Position numbers and translations under genes: made by a program. The notes under the pieces were generated by a model. It did not search any database. It was not told the origin of the DNA and saw only the letters and a program-made list of their open reading frames with translations. DNA of 47,591 bases from Myxococcota bacterium (GTDB lineage Bacteria; Myxococcota_A; UBA9160; SZUA-336): the NCBI GenBank assembly GCA_035498015.1, contig DATKAO010000032.1, forward strand, positions 1 through 47,591, in the 5' to 3' direction. The number at the start of each line of letters is the position of its first letter. Within the stretch, counting starts at the first letter, position 1. This document shows, in pieces, positions 491-7,021 of this stretch.

Positions 491-1951
491 ATGGTCGCGC
501 CCAAGCCTGCGTACGAGCCCACCCTCGCGAGCCTGAAGCGGCATACGGCGCCGCCTTGGTACGACGAGGCCAAGCTCGGGATCTTCGTCCACTGGACCCC
601 GGCCTCGGTGATCGGCTTTGCGCCGCGCGAGAAGGAGATCAACGAGCTGCTCGTCGAGCGCTACGACGACATGCAGGTCGAGGTGCCGTACACCGAGTGG
701 TACGAGAACTCACTGCGCTTCCCGGGCTCGAGCGTCGCGAAGTACCACCGCGAGCACTTCGGCTCGAAGCCCATGCACGAATTCGCGGCCGACTTCGCCG
801 CCGCGATCGACAAACACTGGGATCCCGAGGCGTGGGCCGACGCGTTTGCGGCGGCGGGAGCGCGCTACGTGGTGCTCGTGACCAAGCACCACGACGGCTT
901 CTGCCTCTGGCCTACGCGCGTGCCGAACCCGAAGCGGCCCGGGTTCAACCTGCGGCGCGACGTGGTCGGCGAGCTGGCGCGCGCCGTGCGTGCGCGCGGC
1001 ATTCGCTTCGGTGTCTACTACTCGGGCGGGCTCGACTGGACCTTCGACGCGCGGCCGATTGCGAACATTGGTGACTTGATCGCGGCCGCGCCCGGCGGCG
1101 CCTATCCGCGCTACGCGGACGCGCATTTTCGCGAGCTCTTGGAGCGCTACCGCCCCGACGTGCTGTGGAACGACATCTCGTGGGCCGGTGACCGGGGCTC
1201 CCTCTTGCGGCTGTTCGCCGACTACTACAACGGGAACCCGGACGGCCTGGTGAACGATCGCTGGACGCCCGTGTACCCGCTCGGCCGGCTGCTGCGCGTG
1301 GCGTTCCTGCGCAACTTGTTCAACCGGCGGGTCAAAGCGGCGGTGCTGAAGCACGGCGGCGCACTGACTCCGCCGCCCGCGCTTCACTCCGACACGCGCA
1401 CGCCCGAGTACGCGACCTTCGCCGAGATCCGCGCCGAGAAGTGGGAGTGTGTGCGCGGCATGGACAAGAGCTTCGGCTTCAACCGCGCGTCGCTGCCCGG
1501 TGACTTCCTCTCGCGCGAGGCGCTGATCCACTCACTGGTGGACATCGCGTCGAAGAACGGAAACCTCTTGCTGAACGTCGGGCCGCGCGGCGAGGACGCG
1601 CAGATCCCGGATCCCCAGCTCGAGCGGCTGCGCTGGCTGGGCAGCTTCACGCGGCGCTACGGCGAGGCGCTCTACGGCACGCACCCGTGGCAGCGGGCGG
1701 AAGGGGAGACGGCCGAAGGCTGGAAGGTGCGCTTCACCGCCCGCGGCGAGACACTCTATGCCTGGCTGCTCGGCGCGCCCCGGGCACAGTCGACGATCGA
1801 GCTCCTCGGCCTGCGCGCCGACTCGGCGCAGCTCGCGGGCGGGCCTGCGCTCGCGCTCGAGCGCACCGGCCGCGGGACACGTTTCCTGCTCCCCGAGCTT
1901 CCCGACGAGCCGGCCCACGCCATCGCGCTGCGCGGGGTGAGCGCGCTCTAG
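491..1951 (+). CDS. GH29 alpha-L-fucosidase
   Basis: A 486-residue retaining glycoside hydrolase that would release terminal L-fucose. Family marks in order: WYDEAKLGIFVHW at residues 23-35, TKHHDGFCLWP at 131-141, the GIRFGVYYSGGLDW strand at 170-183, and RPDVLWNDISW at 221-231. In the last motif Asp228 is at the position of the family nucleophile. SLVDIASKNGNLLLNVGP closes the barrel, and a short beta-rich C-terminal domain follows. There is no recognisable signal peptide, unlike many secreted fucosidases, so it may act on imported oligosaccharides. The gene ends 4 bases inside the convergent phosphoesterase gene. No other glycan-degradation gene adjoins it. Confidence 0.88.
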   Translation: MVAPKPAYEPTLASLKRHTAPPWYDEAKLGIFVHWTPASVIGFAPREKEINELLVERYDDMQVEVPYTEWYENSLRFPGSSVAKYHREHFGSKPMHEFAADFAAAIDKHWDPEAWADAFAAAGARYVVLVTKHHDGFCLWPTRVPNPKRPGFNLRRDVVGELARAVRARGIRFGVYYSGGLDWTFDARPIANIGDLIAAAPGGAYPRYADAHFRELLERYRPDVLWNDISWAGDRGSLLRLFADYYNGNPDGLVNDRWTPVYPLGRLLRVAFLRNLFNRRVKAAVLKHGGALTPPPALHSDTRTPEYATFAEIRAEKWECVRGMDKSFGFNRASLPGDFLSREALIHSLVDIASKNGNLLLNVGPRGEDAQIPDPQLERLRWLGSFTRRYGEALYGTHPWQRAEGETAEGWKVRFTARGETLYAWLLGAPRAQSTIELLGLRADSAQLAGGPALALERTGRGTRFLLPELPDEPAHAIALRGVSAL

Positions 1952-3315
1952 CCTCCTCCATCCTGGGGAACCGAAACTGGCGGCGGAACTCGCGGCAGCA
2001 ACGCCAGCTCCGGGAACCTCTTCAGGGCGCTTCTTCGATTCTTCGCCAGCGCGAGCCGGGCCGCTGTGGCGAAGGCTTGCTGGTGCTCCGTGAGTACCTT
2101 CTTTGGACTGCCGCTAAAGAGCGTCGTGGCCAAGATCGGGTCAGCCGGCGCGGGCGGGAGGTCTGCCCGCGCTTGGGAGAGAGTGAGCACCGACGAGAGA
2201 CTCGCAATTCCCTGTTGCTTGCGGCGAGTGACTTCGTCCGAGTACTTGTCGGCTCCACCCGCGAACTTCTCGCCGATGAGCTGCAGAATCGAAGTGTGGT
2301 CGAAGACAAGATCGCTCACGCCCCCACGAGGCACCCATGGCGAGGCCACGAAGGTAGGAACCCGCACGCCGGTCGTCGTGAAGGCGTCCTTGTAGTGAGC
2401 GCCGTTCGGTGGATCCATCCGGACCGGGTGGGGCTCGACGTGGTCGAAAAAGCCGCCGTGCTCGTCGTAAGTCACGACGAGCAGAGTTCGTAGCCAGCGT
2501 TTGGGAACGTTGGCAAGCGCCGAGTAGATCATGTGCAAGAAGGCCTCTCCGGGGCCGATCGCGAGCGGCGGGTGGTTGTCGTTGGGCGTGAATCCCATGT
2601 GCACCGGTGAGTCCACGTATTCGGGCTCAACGAAGATGACCTGAGGGACGGTCTTCTTCTGAAGATCCGCCGGGAGATCGCGCACACTGCGAAAGTTCTT
2701 GCCGAGCGCGTGATCAGTGCCGAAGAGCAGGAAGAACGACAGACCGCTGTGGTAGACGCGCCAGGAGACGTGGTGTCGTTCGAGCCAGTCGAGCACGAGC
2801 TCGTCGTGGGGAATGATCCCGATGACGTTGTCCTCGATGAGCGAGTTGCCGCTGAAGGCCACGGCGCGATTGGGCTGAGTCCCTGCGGGGAGCGGCGAAT
2901 ACCAGTAGTTGCAGACCAGATACTCCGAGGCAAGGAACCCGGACATGCGAACGTCCTTCGGCGTGAGAAAGCCAAGGGGAGGTGGATCTTGGACCACGCT
3001 GTGGGTTGCCTCGACGTAGGCCTCGACGAAGCCAGACATGGTGGCCTGACCGTTCTGGACGGCGATCTGAGTCGCGATGCTCGCGCGCTCGTGTGGGAAG
3101 TCATGAGGCAGAGGCCCGTCGGGAGCCGCAAACGGCTTGTACGCCCTTTCCAGATAGAAGTTGTCGTAGTGATTGGTCGAAGCGGGGTCTGCGAGACCTT
3201 GGATCTCTGGGCGATTGCCATAGGCGGGGTGATGCAGGTGACCGAGCACGTTGTCGAAGGAACGGTTCTCCATCATCACGATCACGATGGTGTCGATGTC
3301 GTTGATCGTCGCCAT
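1948..3315 (-). CDS. Phospholipase C / acid phosphatase-like phosphoesterase
   Basis: A 455-residue member of the phosphoesterase family that includes non-haemolytic phospholipase C and AcpA. The metal and nucleophile motif MMENRSFDNVLGHLHHP sits at residues 15-31. Later come VVTYDEHGGFFDHV (about 280-293) and FDHTSILQLIGEKF (about 340-353), all typical of the alkaline-phosphatase-like fold. The likely reaction is phosphodiester or phosphomonoester hydrolysis, possibly on phospholipid headgroups. No Sec or Tat signal peptide is present at the ATG at 3315, although most family members are exported. It is the last gene of a six-gene run, starting 5 bases after the stop of the Ig-like lipoprotein gene. 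The substrate is unknown. Confidence 0.82.
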   Translation of the reverse strand: MATINDIDTIVIVMMENRSFDNVLGHLHHPAYGNRPEIQGLADPASTNHYDNFYLERAYKPFAAPDGPLPHDFPHERASIATQIAVQNGQATMSGFVEAYVEATHSVVQDPPPLGFLTPKDVRMSGFLASEYLVCNYWYSPLPAGTQPNRAVAFSGNSLIEDNVIGIIPHDELVLDWLERHHVSWRVYHSGLSFFLLFGTDHALGKNFRSVRDLPADLQKKTVPQVIFVEPEYVDSPVHMGFTPNDNHPPLAIGPGEAFLHMIYSALANVPKRWLRTLLVVTYDEHGGFFDHVEPHPVRMDPPNGAHYKDAFTTTGVRVPTFVASPWVPRGGVSDLVFDHTSILQLIGEKFAGGADKYSDEVTRRKQQGIASLSSVLTLSQARADLPPAPADPILATTLFSGSPKKVLTEHQQAFATAARLALAKNRRSALKRFPELALLPRVPPPVSVPQDGGG

Positions 3316-3320
3316 CTGAC

Positions 3321-3944
3321 CTATCTCGTGCAGAGTCTGTAGAACGTGAACTCGAGCCGCTGCCTCAATGAGCGAAGCGCCGAGTCACAAGACTCGCCCT
3401 GCGCGAGGCGCGAGTCCAGCTGCCAGGCGCCTCGCGCTGCGAGGCCGTTCAGTGCATCACTCTTGGCCCCAGGCGCGAGTGAAACGCGGCGCGCATCCTT
3501 CTCGATCTCGAGCGCCCGGTCCAGAGGATTTGCAACGGAGCCGACACGCAGCCCCGAGCCAACCTGCTGGTCGAGGTCGAGGCGGGCAGCAATGACACGT
3601 GTGTTCGCGTCACAGCTTGCGATGGCGCCGTAGCTCAGGGGCTGCAAAGGCTCGACGTTCACGTCGGCGTCTGCCGATGTGTCGCGCAACACGTTCCAAA
3701 CCTTCAACGTGAAGCGGGTCGAGTGGGGAACCTGAAAGGAGCGCGTTCCCTCGGATGGCTGAGGGCCGGTCCCCGGCAGCTCCGGAGAGCTCTTGAGCGT
3801 CGCCCGGCCGAACACGTCCCAGTGGATGGAAACCGCCTCGCCTGCGCAGACCTCCAGAGGATCGACCCGGAATTCGCTGATGGAGGCGCAGCCGACACTG
3901 AGGCCGATTGCCAGCCAGCAGACCCAGAAGCGATGAGTCCTCAC
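3321..3944 (-). CDS. Lipoprotein with Ig-like domain
   Basis: A 207-residue protein of unknown function. The open frame extends upstream to 4115, but the GTG at 3944 is chosen because it gives VRTHRFWVCWLAIGLSVGC, a lipoprotein signal ending in a lipobox-like SVGC. It also overlaps the stop of the preceding gene as GTGA (4 bases), a sign of translational coupling. The first 100 mature residues resemble a bacterial Ig/PKD-like beta sandwich: a P-L-E-V-C-A-G-E-A-V-S-I-H-W strand pair, then R-F-T-L-K-V-W-N. The C-terminal half is charged, with several Cys. It is the fifth gene of the YEATS-like cassette and is probably anchored in a periplasm-facing leaflet. No family name is recognised with confidence. 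Confidence 0.72.
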   Translation of the reverse strand: MRTHRFWVCWLAIGLSVGCASISEFRVDPLEVCAGEAVSIHWDVFGRATLKSSPELPGTGPQPSEGTRSFQVPHSTRFTLKVWNVLRDTSADADVNVEPLQPLSYGAIASCDANTRVIAARLDLDQQVGSGLRVGSVANPLDRALEIEKDARRVSLAPGAKSDALNGLAARGAWQLDSRLAQGESCDSALRSLRQRLEFTFYRLCTR

Positions 3945-4915
3945 TTCGTGTCCTTCTTGCCTCCCACTCCCTGAGACAGAATGTACCCGGAGAGCGCGCC
4001 CAGGAGAGTGCCGATCGACTGCGATTCGATTCGGCCCGACAGCGCAAGCGCGAAGACCACGATGATCAGCAGCGTAGCCGACGCGAACTGCACCACCTGG
4101 CCCGAACGGACCCACTCTGCCTGAATCTCGGTTTCGAAGCGCCGGATCAGCAGGACGAGGGTCGAGACTCCGCCGAAGAACAGCGCCATCATCCAGGGGA
4201 AGCTCGTGATGAAGCGCCCGCGCGAGACGAGCTCCGAGAGCGTCGCTTCATTGGCGTGCGCGCGTTTTGCTCTGGCATCGATCAGTCTCACCGCGCACTT
4301 CTGCTGGGCCTCGTGCTCCTTGAACTGATCGATAGCGAGCTGGTCGGAGTAACCCCAGTAGTCGTAGACGGCATTGATGAGCTCGTCGCGCGGACCCGTC
4401 GCAGGAGCGGCGAAGTCTCTGCACAGGCGGGCGCGATCCTTGAAGCGCTCGAGCAGATCGTCGAGCTTGCCGGCGGCTTCCTTGGGCTGCTCGAACTGAA
4501 GTCTCGACATGAGCTGGACGTCGGCCTTGATGCTGTCGATGCGCTGTGAGAAGGCCTCCAAGCCGTCTTGAGTGCCGCAGTTCGGCGGCGTTTCCTTCAG
4601 CACTTTGAACCCGAGATCCAGTCGCGAGCGGGCGGGATCGGCGATCTGGGGCGGGTAGGCCAGGGGTGTCGCGCGCAGACTCTCGAGTCGAGACACCTCC
4701 CGTGAGTTGTCGAGCGCGAACCGGATCAGTGTTCCGGAGTCGTCCGAGTCAGCCTCGGCCGAGTCCGAAATGCTGCGCACTTCGCGATCGCAGTCGTTCG
4801 GGTCCGCGGGGACGGTCGCTTCATCGGCGAGCGCGTTTGCGGAGAGCGCGAGGAAGGCGACCGTTGCGGCAAAGCTAAGCAACTCCCGAGTCCTCGTAGA
4901 AGGCCGCGACGCCAC
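3941..4915 (-). CDS. Signal-peptide membrane protein, YEATS-cassette partner
   Basis: A 324-residue protein of unknown function. A GTG at 4915 gives a basic n-region followed by a hydrophobic stretch ending ANALADEA, a good Sec signal. A TTG at 4882 with a GAGG upstream is an alternative start. The middle (about 30-235) is helical, charged and Cys-containing, probably periplasmic. Two transmembrane helices follow near residues 240-262 and 275-297, then IGTLLGALSGYILSQG and a Lys-rich end. The 5' end overlaps the upstream gene by 41 bases. The terminal glycine-rich hydrophobic segment resembles those of other small membrane sensors, but no family is assigned. Confidence 0.7.
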   Translation of the reverse strand: MASRPSTRTRELLSFAATVAFLALSANALADEATVPADPNDCDREVRSISDSAEADSDDSGTLIRFALDNSREVSRLESLRATPLAYPPQIADPARSRLDLGFKVLKETPPNCGTQDGLEAFSQRIDSIKADVQLMSRLQFEQPKEAAGKLDDLLERFKDRARLCRDFAAPATGPRDELINAVYDYWGYSDQLAIDQFKEHEAQQKCAVRLIDARAKRAHANEATLSELVSRGRFITSFPWMMALFFGGVSTLVLLIRRFETEIQAEWVRSGQVVQFASATLLIIVVFALALSGRIESQSIGTLLGALSGYILSQGVGGKKDTK

Positions 4916-5942
4916 CCGGAATCTCGTGCAGGTTCAGCTCGAGGCGCGCAAGCTCCCTCCCGTCCGGGGCGAGAACCTGGGCTCCCACCGTGAAGTAGCC
5001 CCAGGCCACGATTTGAAGCCGTGCAGCGCCGTCTACGAGTTGGACGGTCTCGACGTTGCGAGCGAATGTAGGGTGAAGCAAGAAACGCACCGAGCCCGTG
5101 CGAGACGGGACGGTAGTCGAGCTAGTGACTCGTAGATCGATCCAATTCGCTCTGTTGTCGATCTGTGGCGCTGGCTGGATGGCTGCGGACAACGTGTAGC
5201 CATTGGCCGCGCTCTGTCCGTTGGCGTAGCCGGCATGGGGATCGGACTCCCACATCTCCTGGGCGTTCTTGTAGCCTTCGCGTGCGGGCGCAGTCACTGG
5301 ATTGCGCGCCGCCGCGGCTACCACGGCCGCGGTCTGCGATACGTCGGCGAGCTTCTTCTCGAACATCTTCTGCAGCCGCCCCAGTACGCCCGACTCGGCG
5401 TATGCGAGCGCCGGTCCGAGATACAGCCGCGTGGCCAGGTAGATGCCGAGAAATCCAAAGACCGGATAGAAGATGACCAGAGCCACCGCCGCGGCCTTCG
5501 CGCCCTCTCCGGTACAGGCCGCCCCAGCGCACTCGCCGAGCGAGCCGCGGACCGACTCGGCCAACTCCAAGCCGAGGCTCTTGATCGTGCCCAGCTCGAC
5601 GAGCGAGATCCCGACCAGCGCCTTCGTGAGCCAGTCGGAGATCTGCGCCAGGCTGTCGTTCACCAGGGGGCGATAGATCGGCGCCTTGGCGTCCGAGCTC
5701 CCGGCATCCGCAGAGATGTCCGCGCCATTCTCGTGGACACGCGGCAGTCCGAAGAGGAAGCCGGGAACGGCACCTACGGCAGTGAGTGCCAGGCTCCACA
5801 GCGCGCCGGCGAACGCTGGGCGCCACCCGAGCTGCAGGGCGAAGAGCACGACGAGGAAGGTACTGGCTCCCCAGGTTGCAAGGAGGATCCAGGCCAGCTG
5901 GAGTGAGGTCTCTTCGGATGCATCCGTCGTGTCTGCTGCCAC
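4875..5942 (-). CDS. Multi-TM protein with C-terminal YEATS-like domain
   Basis: A 355-residue membrane protein. The GTG at 5942 is the only usable start, because an in-frame stop lies 9 bases upstream. Hydrophobic segments lie near residues 15-37 and 44-66, the second ending in GFLFGLPR. A conserved-looking YRPLVNDSLAQISDWLTKALVG follows at 90-111, and another helix at 149-171. Residues about 283-341 look like a YEATS beta-sandwich: VRFLLHPTF (285-293), then AWGYFTVGAQV (313-323), DGRE and LARLELNLHEIPG. These match the YEATS pattern of a V-x-Y-x-L-H-P-x-F strand followed by G-W-G-x-F. Prokaryotic YEATS-like domains in membrane proteins have been described as predicted conflict-system components (recollection). 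Third gene of a six-gene run. Confidence 0.68.
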   Translation of the reverse strand: MAADTTDASEETSLQLAWILLATWGASTFLVVLFALQLGWRPAFAGALWSLALTAVGAVPGFLFGLPRVHENGADISADAGSSDAKAPIYRPLVNDSLAQISDWLTKALVGISLVELGTIKSLGLELAESVRGSLGECAGAACTGEGAKAAAVALVIFYPVFGFLGIYLATRLYLGPALAYAESGVLGRLQKMFEKKLADVSQTAAVVAAAARNPVTAPAREGYKNAQEMWESDPHAGYANGQSAANGYTLSAAIQPAPQIDNRANWIDLRVTSSTTVPSRTGSVRFLLHPTFARNVETVQLVDGAARLQIVAWGYFTVGAQVLAPDGRELARLELNLHEIPGGVAAFYEDSGVA

Positions 5943-5964
5943 GCCGGCGATTCAATCACTGACC

Positions 5965-6192
5965 TCAGGGCGTCAACAAGTGATTCGCTCGAGATCCCAA
6001 GTTGTCGCCAGGTTCCGAAGCCGCGTCCTTGCTCGGCTCGTGCCGGATCGTCCACTCGAGATCGGTGTTGGTCGAGATCCCTTTGTCGCTGTCGATCCGG
6101 CCGAAGTCACGCGGGACCGCTTGGTGGTGCGCGCAGGCGGAGAGCCCGAGCGAAGCCAGGACCCAGACCCAAGCCACGACGAGCGACTTCAT
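5965..6192 (-). CDS. Small lipoprotein, 75 residues
   Basis: A short lipoprotein: MKSLVVAWVWVLASLGLSAC gives a clear n-region, hydrophobic core and LSAC lipobox with Cys20. The mature part is only 55 polar residues, containing a TNTDLEW segment, and has no recognisable domain. The ATG at 6190-6192 overlaps the stop of the upstream lipoprotein gene (ATGA). The next gene starts 22 bases downstream, so it sits in the middle of the transcription unit. It could be an accessory of the upstream lipoprotein. Function unknown. Confidence 0.65.
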   Translation of the reverse strand: MKSLVVAWVWVLASLGLSACAHHQAVPRDFGRIDSDKGISTNTDLEWTIRHEPSKDAASEPGDNLGSRANHLLTP

Positions 6193-6860
6193 CGCGCCGC
6201 GGCCTCCGAATTCGTGAGATCGAAGCTCGAGCCGCCCGCGTCGCCGAGCTGCGGATACTTGTCCATCAGCTCGACGATCGCTCGAACCATCTCCTCGAGT
6301 GTCTGCTGGGTCGCGCGGTCCAGGGCGATGTTGTAGGGGCCGGTCACGGAGGCGATCTGACCACCTCGCCAGCCTTTCACGAAGAAGCCGCGGTCGGCCT
6401 CGAGGCCGGTGTCGCTCGACACGCGCAGGCGCACGAACAGGTCGGCCTCGAGACTTCCCGTCCAGAAGCCGTGGATGGGCTCGACGAAGAGCTTGGCGAG
6501 GGAGCCCTCGACTCGCAGCGCGCCAGGCTTGTGCGGCGCGTCGGGCGTGAGCACGGTGAAGCCGGTCGTGCGGAGCTCGTTGGCCAGGATCTGCGCGAGC
6601 CACACGTTGGGATCGCCCTGGCAGACCGCGTCTGCGGTATCCATGTCGTAGCCGTTGGTCTGCATGCCGCAGCGCCACTTGGTCTCGCGCTCGTCTGCGA
6701 ACGGACTCACTACGACGACCTGCCGGCCGTTGCCACCGGTCACGGGATGCTCGAGCCCACGCGTGGGCAGCGTGAGGTCGATGTTCGAGAAGGCGCAAGC
6801 GCTCGACAGCAAGGAGGTTGCGAGGAGTAGGAGTAGGAGTGGCGAGCGTAGCTGGAACAT
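6189..6860 (-). CDS. YajG-like lipoprotein
   Basis: A 223-residue predicted lipoprotein that opens the six-gene run. The signal ends LLSSACAF, with the acylated Cys near residue 21. The mature protein reads like YajG-type or related lipoproteins: a VVVVSPFADER strand, a helix NVWLAQILANELRTTGFTV, then alternating strands (ALRVEGSLAKLFVEP, EADLFVRLRV) and a C-terminal helix TQQTLEEMVRAIVELMDKYPQL. Such proteins usually sit on the periplasmic face of the outer membrane. An insert MQTNGYDMDTADAVC with paired Cys is unusual. The product of the YEATS-like gene lies two genes downstream. Function is inferred from shape only. Confidence 0.68.
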   Translation of the reverse strand: MFQLRSPLLLLLLATSLLSSACAFSNIDLTLPTRGLEHPVTGGNGRQVVVVSPFADERETKWRCGMQTNGYDMDTADAVCQGDPNVWLAQILANELRTTGFTVLTPDAPHKPGALRVEGSLAKLFVEPIHGFWTGSLEADLFVRLRVSSDTGLEADRGFFVKGWRGGQIASVTGPYNIALDRATQQTLEEMVRAIVELMDKYPQLGDAGGSSFDLTNSEAAAR

Positions 6861-7021
6861 CGCGACGCAGGATACTGCCTCTCTCGACGCTCCGGGTGCA
6901 AGAGCGCTTGCGGGTCAGGGGCGTGTCTGGCCAGGGCGTGTCTGGCCAGGGCGTGTCTGGGACTGACTCTTCTGTTCTCGCTCGTGGCGGCGTCGAGCCG
7001 CGCGGGCATGGAGGGAAGAGG
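6861..7021 (+). promoter_or_regulatory. Intergenic control region upstream of the YEATS cassette
   Basis: This 161-base gap separates the first gene of the minus-strand six-gene run from the small plus-strand peptide gene, so it should carry promoters for both. A 15-base tandem repeat lies inside it (6921-6960). No convincing -35/-10 pair was recognised by eye. Confidence 0.4.
6921..6960. repeat. 15-bp tandem repeat, 2.7 copies
   Basis: Unit GCGTGTCTGGCCAGG occurs at 6921-6935 and 6936-6950, with a partial third copy at 6951-6960; the copies are identical. The unit contains the palindromic core TGGCCA. It lies 61 bases upstream of the first gene of the YEATS-like cassette and could be a slippage product or a repeated protein-binding site. 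Confidence 0.85.

What the first reader, a model, noticed from the sequence alone, without database searches (positions are those of the whole stretch)
1948..6860. Six-gene envelope cassette built around a YEATS-like membrane protein
Seen: six same-strand genes joined by overlaps or gaps of 22 bases or less. They encode a YajG-like lipoprotein, a 75-residue lipoprotein, a multi-TM protein with a YEATS-like C-terminus, a signal-peptide two-TM protein, an Ig-like lipoprotein and a phospholipase C-like phosphoesterase without a signal peptide. Known (recollection): prokaryotic YEATS-like domains in membrane proteins have been noted in predicted conflict systems, and phospholipases serve as effectors in some of those. 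Inference: this could be an envelope-stress or defence module with a membrane sensor and a lipid- or phosphoester-cleaving effector. I know of no description of this exact gene set.
Basis: partly seen in the sequence, partly recalled or inferred. Interest (0 to 1): 0.75.

Follow-up and report, generated by a model that had tools for sequence, protein, structure and literature searches.

The report
Bacterial YEATS membrane sensor–phospholipase operon
A run of six genes in an uncultured bacterium holds an apparently imported four-gene unit that pairs a membrane protein carrying a bacterial version of the eukaryotic acyl-lysine-reading YEATS domain with an intracellular phospholipase C, and relatives of that membrane protein often sit beside membrane- or nucleic-acid-destroying enzymes, so it is probably a self-destruct or conflict module, although nobody has tested it.

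Summary
The six genes are real, co-directional and tightly packed. The 4875-5942 product is a genuine pYEATS protein (Pfam PF20305, E=1e-11; its model matches YEATS crystal structures), and 1948-3315 encodes an intact PF04185 phospholipase C-like enzyme without a signal peptide. As a conserved six-gene cassette the finding fails. The two lipoprotein genes form a separate pair, found elsewhere without the rest. None of about 13 independent TM-pYEATS loci has homologues of the flanking genes. What hangs together is the four-gene P0003-P0006 block: unusually low GC3, and a YEATS-type gene found in 1 of 91 genomes of its class. P0003 joins a widespread 4-TM domain (conserved SDWLTK; no family model covers it) to pYEATS. 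Elsewhere the 4-TM domain carries receiver, TPR or HEAT-like modules, and pYEATS follows SIR2, TIR, FRG or trypsin. TM-pYEATS genes recurrently adjoin unrelated hydrolases: patatin, Tle1-like phospholipase, LpxR, PLD-like, trypsin-nuclease. P0003 keeps the acyl-lysine pocket of eukaryotic YEATS domains (T292, F293, W314, G315 = Taf14 T61, F62, W81, G82). Best reading: a membrane-anchored pYEATS sensor or adaptor controlling a cytosolic membrane-damaging phospholipase, a variant of predicted pYEATS conflict systems. Function is untested and no defence island surrounds it.

The parts
6189..6860 (-). P0001, 223-aa lipoprotein, weakly YajG/Lipoprotein_16-like; first gene of a separate two-lipoprotein module
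   Evidence: PF03923 E=0.0014, below cut-off; 61% identical homologue in G034/L037, paired with a P0002 homologue, without P0003-P0006
5965..6192 (-). P0002, 75-aa small lipoprotein, partner of P0001 (4-base overlap)
   Evidence: 34% identical partner in L037
4875..5942 (-). P0003, 355-aa 4-TM + pYEATS membrane protein
5403..5903 (-). P0003 residues 14-180: 4-TM domain with GFLFGLPR and QISDWLTK motifs, not covered by any Pfam/NCBIfam model
   Evidence: conservation; hydropathy; helices; no family shared by the domain
4887..5252 (-). P0003 residues 231-352: extended pYEATS domain (DPxxG...NG signature plus YEATS beta-sandwich)
   Evidence: pLDDT about 80-93; Taf14/YEATS2/GAS41 YEATS top hits
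4998..5075 (-). P0003 H290-x-T292-F293 and W314-G315: equivalents of Taf14 H59/T61/F62/W81/G82 acyl-lysine pocket
   Evidence: profile alignment to Taf14/YEATS2; PMC6212594 names F62, T61, W81, G82; T/S 22/22, F 21/22, aromatic at W314 15/22
3941..4915 (-). P0004, 324 aa: Sec signal peptide, Cys-containing predicted helical periplasmic region, C-terminal TM hairpin; orphan
   Evidence: one weak C-terminal hit in 266 genomes; low-confidence helical model
3321..3944 (-). P0005, 207-aa lipoprotein with four further Cys; distant paralogue elsewhere in the same genome
1948..3315 (-). P0006, 455-aa PF04185 phospholipase C-like phosphoesterase, no signal peptide, ENRSFD / TQPNR / TYDEHGGFFDHV motifs intact

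Best explanation
The functional core is the four-gene unit P0003-P0004-P0005-P0006, probably acquired horizontally and placed behind an unrelated resident lipoprotein pair (P0001-P0002). P0003 is an inner-membrane protein: a 4-TM domain with, by hydropathy and positive-inside reasoning, a cytoplasmic C-terminal pYEATS domain that retains the YEATS acyl-lysine pocket. I propose that the pYEATS domain is a sensor or adaptor that binds an acylated protein, peptide or small acyl ligand in the cytoplasm. Binding recruits or releases the cytosolic phospholipase C-like enzyme P0006 at the inner membrane, which cleaves phospholipids and damages the cell's own membrane (abortive-infection-like). P0004 and P0005 would be periplasmic partners that gate or anchor P0003. 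Shown: gene order, domains, fold, pocket residues, intact catalytic motifs, distinct composition, sporadic distribution, recurrent hydrolase neighbours. Inferred: topology, ligand, activation of P0006, physiological role, role of P0004/P0005.
For: pYEATS above its cut-off and YEATS fold. Pocket residues aligned with Taf14 and YEATS2. pYEATS is fused in relatives to SIR2, TIR+ParA-like ATPase, FRG and trypsin domains, i.e. to domains known as conflict effectors. In rhizobial conjugative plasmids it is operonic with caspase, alpha/beta hydrolase and patatin genes. Of about 13 independent TM-pYEATS loci, 9 have an effector-type hydrolase within three genes and 6-8 of these may act on lipids: window PLC, L068 patatin, L104 Tle1-like plus CHAP, L063 papain plus PLAT protein plus muramidase, L047 LpxR plus trypsin, L048 PGAP1-like (weak), L049 PLD-like (opposite strand), L143 patatin; the ninth is L089 trypsin-nuclease. 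L114: 4-TM gene with a P0006 homologue two genes downstream. PADLOC phospholipase-effector and trypsin/MBL models hit some chain neighbours. P0003-P0006 have third-position GC of 0.78-0.81 against about 0.85-0.95 for neighbouring genes. P0003 occurs in 1 of 91 genomes of its class.
Against: No homologue of P0004 or P0005 accompanies any other TM-pYEATS gene. Several TM-pYEATS genes stand alone or lack a recognisable hydrolase (L043, L044, L053, L056). The hydrolase neighbours are not homologous to one another and the count is small and post hoc; my near/far comparison (7/427 vs 1/571, p=0.013) used queries drawn from near genes, so it is biased. No PADLOC hit in the cassette and no defence island. 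7 of 22 pYEATS domains lack the aromatic at the W314 position, so acyl-lysine binding may not be the common function. Orientation of P0003 rests on hydropathy and a medium-confidence model.
Confidence: 0.45

Rival explanations
1. Envelope or lipid homeostasis operon: P0006 turns over phospholipids (for instance phosphate release) and P0001-P0005 are envelope maintenance or stress proteins; the pYEATS domain is a structural or regulatory beta-domain without an immune role.
For: Five of six products are exported or membrane proteins; TM-pYEATS genes in Bacteroidota can sit among secreted and envelope proteins (L043, L047); window neighbourhood is metabolic.
Against: P0006 has no signal peptide, so it does not scavenge outside the cell; sporadic distribution and deviant composition do not suit housekeeping; pYEATS relatives are fused to NADase-type and protease domains.
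Confidence: 0.2
2. Not a functional unit: several independently acquired genes that happen to run in the same direction; the pYEATS gene and the phospholipase gene are unrelated in function.
For: No other genome shows the set; P0001-P0002 is demonstrably separable; PF04185 genes are common and the genome has another one.
Against: P0003/P0004 overlap by 41 bases and P0004/P0005 by 4, P0005/P0006 gap is 5 bases; shared low GC3 of P0003-P0006; repeated co-location of hydrolases with TM-pYEATS genes in unrelated phyla and of a P0006 homologue with a 4-TM gene.
Confidence: 0.22
3. Interbacterial antagonism or lysis module: the hydrolase is a toxin for competitors or a lysis enzyme, and the membrane and lipoproteins are immunity or release proteins.
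For: Neighbours in relatives include Tle1-like T6SS-type phospholipase, CHAP/PG-binding lysin and N-acetylmuramidase.
Against: No secretion genes, export signal or delivery marker on P0006; no immunity-type pairing is conserved; viral collection holds only two distant 4-TM relatives and phage records none.
Confidence: 0.13

Closest known systems
pYEATS (Pfam PF20305), described as a component of predicted prokaryotic immune systems by Burroughs and Aravind 2020 (J Bacteriol 202:e00365-20; not readable here, content recalled)
   Same: P0003 carries the domain above the curated cut-off, with the YEATS fold and pocket residues; relatives are fused to or beside effector enzymes
   Different: Here the domain is fused to a 4-TM domain, and the neighbours are a PF04185 phospholipase and two orphan exported proteins; I could not check whether that paper lists this arrangement
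Eukaryotic YEATS acyl-lysine readers (Taf14, YEATS2, AF9)
   Same: Fold; H-x-T/S-F and W-G motifs
   Different: Bacterial membrane protein; no histones; ligand unknown; sequence similarity only marginal (E about 0.005-0.03 by profile)
Phospholipase C / PF04185 phosphoesterases (PC-PLC, plant NPC4, AcpA)
   Same: All hallmark motifs
   Different: No signal peptide; far below the PC_PLC equivalog cut-off (127.6 against 580 bits), so substrate is not established
CBASS patatin-like phospholipase effectors (CapV type)
   Same: Would act alike: an intracellular lipase damaging the cell's own membrane; patatins do sit beside TM-pYEATS genes in L068 and L143
   Different: No nucleotide cyclase is encoded in the cassette, the lipase is of an unrelated fold family, and PADLOC finds nothing in the cassette

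Membership tests
pYEATS domain PF20305 | Profile score above curated cut-off | tested here: met
   44.7 bits against 26.9
YEATS superfamily | YEATS beta-sandwich fold | tested here: met
   Taf14, YEATS2 and GAS41 YEATS structures dominate the hits, TM-score by target up to 0.58; domain pLDDT about 80-93
YEATS acyl-lysine readers | Aromatic sandwich and T/S, G pocket residues | tested here: met
   T292, F293, W314, G315 equal Taf14 T61, F62, W81, G82
YEATS acyl-lysine readers | Binding of an acylated lysine | not testable with these tools
   needs binding assay
Predicted pYEATS conflict systems | pYEATS fused to or operonic with an effector enzyme | tested here: inconclusive
   met in relatives; in the window P0006 is three genes downstream of P0003, a different lipase family
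Predicted pYEATS conflict systems | Located in a defence island | tested here: not met
   flanked by fucosidase, catalase-like, DUF1329, acyl-CoA dehydrogenase genes; no PADLOC hit among the six proteins
Predicted pYEATS conflict systems | Protects against phage or plasmid | not testable with these tools
   needs experiment
PF04185 phosphoesterase/phospholipase C | Profile and metal-site/catalytic motifs | tested here: met
Secreted phosphocholine-specific PLC (TIGR03396) | Equivalog cut-off and export signal | tested here: not met
   127.6 against 580.25 bits; no signal peptide
CBASS | CD-NTase gene in the operon | tested here: not met
   none among the six proteins
   none beside TM-pYEATS genes in 80 loci; only a PF04185 gene near a 4-TM gene in L114; P0001-P0002 occur apart

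The most novel reading that the evidence does not exclude
A bacterial transmembrane receptor uses a YEATS domain to read lysine acylation (or another acyl mark) on cytoplasmic proteins, and switches on an intracellular phospholipase that destroys the cell's own membrane. The 4-TM domain, covered by no family model, would be a general platform onto which different sensor modules (pYEATS, receiver-like, TPR, HEAT-like) are fitted.
Probability: 0.15. Interest if true: 0.85.

Novelty: new variant of a known kind. Interest (0 to 1): 0.52.

Why it matters
Prokaryotic YEATS domains have been noted only computationally and, to my knowledge, no ligand or function has been shown. A bacterial membrane protein that keeps the full acyl-lysine pocket and is encoded near a membrane-cleaving enzyme gives a concrete testable case: it asks whether bacteria read protein acylation to decide on self-destruction, and where the eukaryotic chromatin reader came from. 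The widespread 4-TM 'SDWLTK' domain with interchangeable sensor modules is a separate lead covered by no current Pfam or NCBIfam model.

Tried and rejected
Six-gene conserved cassette: rejected. Full-length P0003 homologues in the phylum: none found with P0003 or with the TM-pYEATS profile, only single-domain relatives. L011/L021 hit to the N-terminal half: judged chance, removed. P0004 similarity to a gene in L016: chance level. P0004 versus the signal-peptide + TM gene of L114 (4569-5762): similar layout (signal peptide, C-terminal TM hairpin, GYL-type end) but no sequence support; not claimed. P0004 structure: single-sequence model too poor for fold search (mean pLDDT 52.6). First genome-contig scan with P0003 alone found nothing. 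Literature searches for prokaryotic YEATS returned no held paper on it; the 2020 source paper is not held. TM-pYEATS proteins in phage records: none.
Full report
What is there. Six minus-strand genes fill 1948-6860 with overlaps of 4, 41 and 4 bases and gaps of 22 and 5 bases. P0003 (5942-4875) has four predicted TM helices and a C-terminal pYEATS domain (PF20305, 44.7 bits against a cut-off of 26.9). P0006 (3315-1948) is a PF04185 phosphoesterase related to solved phospholipases C and plant NPC4, with ENRSFD, TQPNR and TYDEHGGFFDHV motifs intact and no signal peptide. P0004 has a signal peptide, a Cys-containing exported region and C-terminal TM segments. P0005 has a lipobox and four further Cys. 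P0001 and P0002 are lipoproteins. P0002, P0004 and P0005 have no Pfam family, and none of the six has a PADLOC family.

The six do not form one conserved cassette. In a relative of the same class, P0001 (61% identity) and P0002 (34%) occur as an overlapping pair with nothing of P0003-P0006 around them. P0003-P0006 have third-position GC of 0.78-0.81, while P0001 is at 0.86 and clear genes of the window at about 0.85-0.95. The P0003 architecture is found in 1 of 91 genomes of the class, and in the phylum only single-domain relatives appear. The simplest history is a four-gene import set behind a resident lipoprotein pair.

Architecture of P0003. Its N-terminal half belongs to a widespread 4-TM domain with conserved GFLFGIPR and N-x-N-L-x-Q-I-SDWLTK motifs, found in Actinomycetota, Bacteroidota, Pseudomonadota, Acidobacteriota, Cyanobacteria and others (at least 160 encoded relatives, list truncated). 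Neither Pfam nor NCBIfam has a model shared by its members. The domain is followed by pYEATS, receiver-like, TPR or HEAT-like regions, or nothing (HEAT-like by my reading of the sequences). The pYEATS half is likewise mobile: elsewhere it follows SIR2, TIR plus ParA-like ATPase, FRG and trypsin-like domains. About a dozen independent loci carry the same 4-TM plus pYEATS fusion; L143 has a shortened membrane part.

Fold and pocket. A model from the 12-sequence alignment gives a confident beta-sandwich for residues 240-350, whose best PDB matches are YEATS domains of Taf14, YEATS2 and GAS41. A profile of 22 pYEATS domains aligns LHPTF and AWGAF with LHPTF and GWGGF of Taf14. Published Taf14 pocket residues F62, T61, W81 and G82 (PMC6212594) therefore correspond to P0003 F293, T292, W314 and G315. 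Across the 22 domains the T/S is kept in 22, the F in 21, and an aromatic at the W position in 15. Residue conservation is shown; acyl-lysine binding is not.

Neighbours in other genomes. Yet hydrolases recur next to TM-pYEATS genes: patatin (L068; L143), Tle1-like phospholipase with a CHAP/peptidoglycan-binding protein (L104), papain-like protease, PLAT-domain protein and N-acetylmuramidase (L063), LpxR with a trypsin-like peptidase (L047), a weak PGAP1-like alpha/beta hydrolase (L048), a PLD-like protein on the opposite strand (L049) and a trypsin-nuclease fusion (L089). L043, L044, L053 and L056 have none recognised. In L114 a 4-TM gene is followed two genes later by a PF04185 enzyme homologous to P0006 and also lacking a signal peptide. 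In rhizobial plasmids pYEATS genes sit with caspase, alpha/beta hydrolase, S8 protease and patatin genes. A rough near/far count (7 of 427 against 1 of 571) favours association but its queries were chosen from near genes, so it is descriptive only. The locus set was also seeded on the SDWLTK motif and cut at 80, so it is not a random sample.

Mechanism. The best-supported reading is a membrane-anchored pYEATS sensor or adaptor governing an intracellular lipase: cytoplasmic pYEATS (topology inferred from hydropathy and charges) senses an acylated ligand (inferred from the pocket), and the cytosolic PLC-like P0006 is the membrane-damaging effector (inferred from its family, lack of export signal and analogous neighbours). 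P0004 and P0005 are likely periplasmic partners, role unknown. I hold this at 0.45. Rivals are an envelope-lipid housekeeping operon, an accidental assembly, and an antagonism or lysis module.

Comparison with the known. P0003 belongs to the pYEATS domain family by test. The unit resembles, but is not shown to be a member of, the predicted pYEATS immune systems of Burroughs and Aravind (2020), which I could not read here. It would work like CBASS patatin effectors but fails CBASS membership (no cyclase). The locus is not in a defence island. I rate it a new variant of a known kind.

Noticed in passing
L043-L122, window 5403-5903: A widespread 4-TM 'SDWLTK' membrane domain with interchangeable C-terminal modules (pYEATS, receiver-like, TPR, HEAT-like, PASTA or Ig in single cases) has no shared Pfam or NCBIfam model; chain neighbours include S8, trypsin, patatin, endonuclease and PLC genes.
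   Followed up: partly
L143, L144, L145 (rhizobial plasmids): Conjugative plasmids of Mesorhizobium, Rhizobium and Sinorhizobium carry tight clusters of pYEATS genes with patatin, caspase-family, alpha/beta hydrolase and lysozyme genes; more tractable than the window for tests.
   Followed up: partly
L089:1-3323: TM-pYEATS gene followed after 27 bases by a fused trypsin-like protease and DNA/RNA non-specific endonuclease, reminiscent of protease-nuclease pairs recurrently acquired by antiviral systems (PMC12799240).
   Followed up: no
L036:6163-7763 (G000:C99): A second PF04185 gene in the same genome has a signal peptide but looks split by a frameshift or assembly error.
   Followed up: no
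L035:8546-9172 (G000:C219): A stand-alone lipoprotein gene distantly homologous to P0005 (about 28-31% identity) elsewhere in the same genome, without the other cassette genes.
   Followed up: partly
window 6918-6962: Three tandem copies of a GTGTCTGGCCAGGGC-like unit just upstream of P0001.
   Followed up: no
L052:4000-12170: 4-TM gene with a receiver-like C-terminus near a patatin gene and two subtilase-like genes (Ignavibacteria).
   Followed up: no
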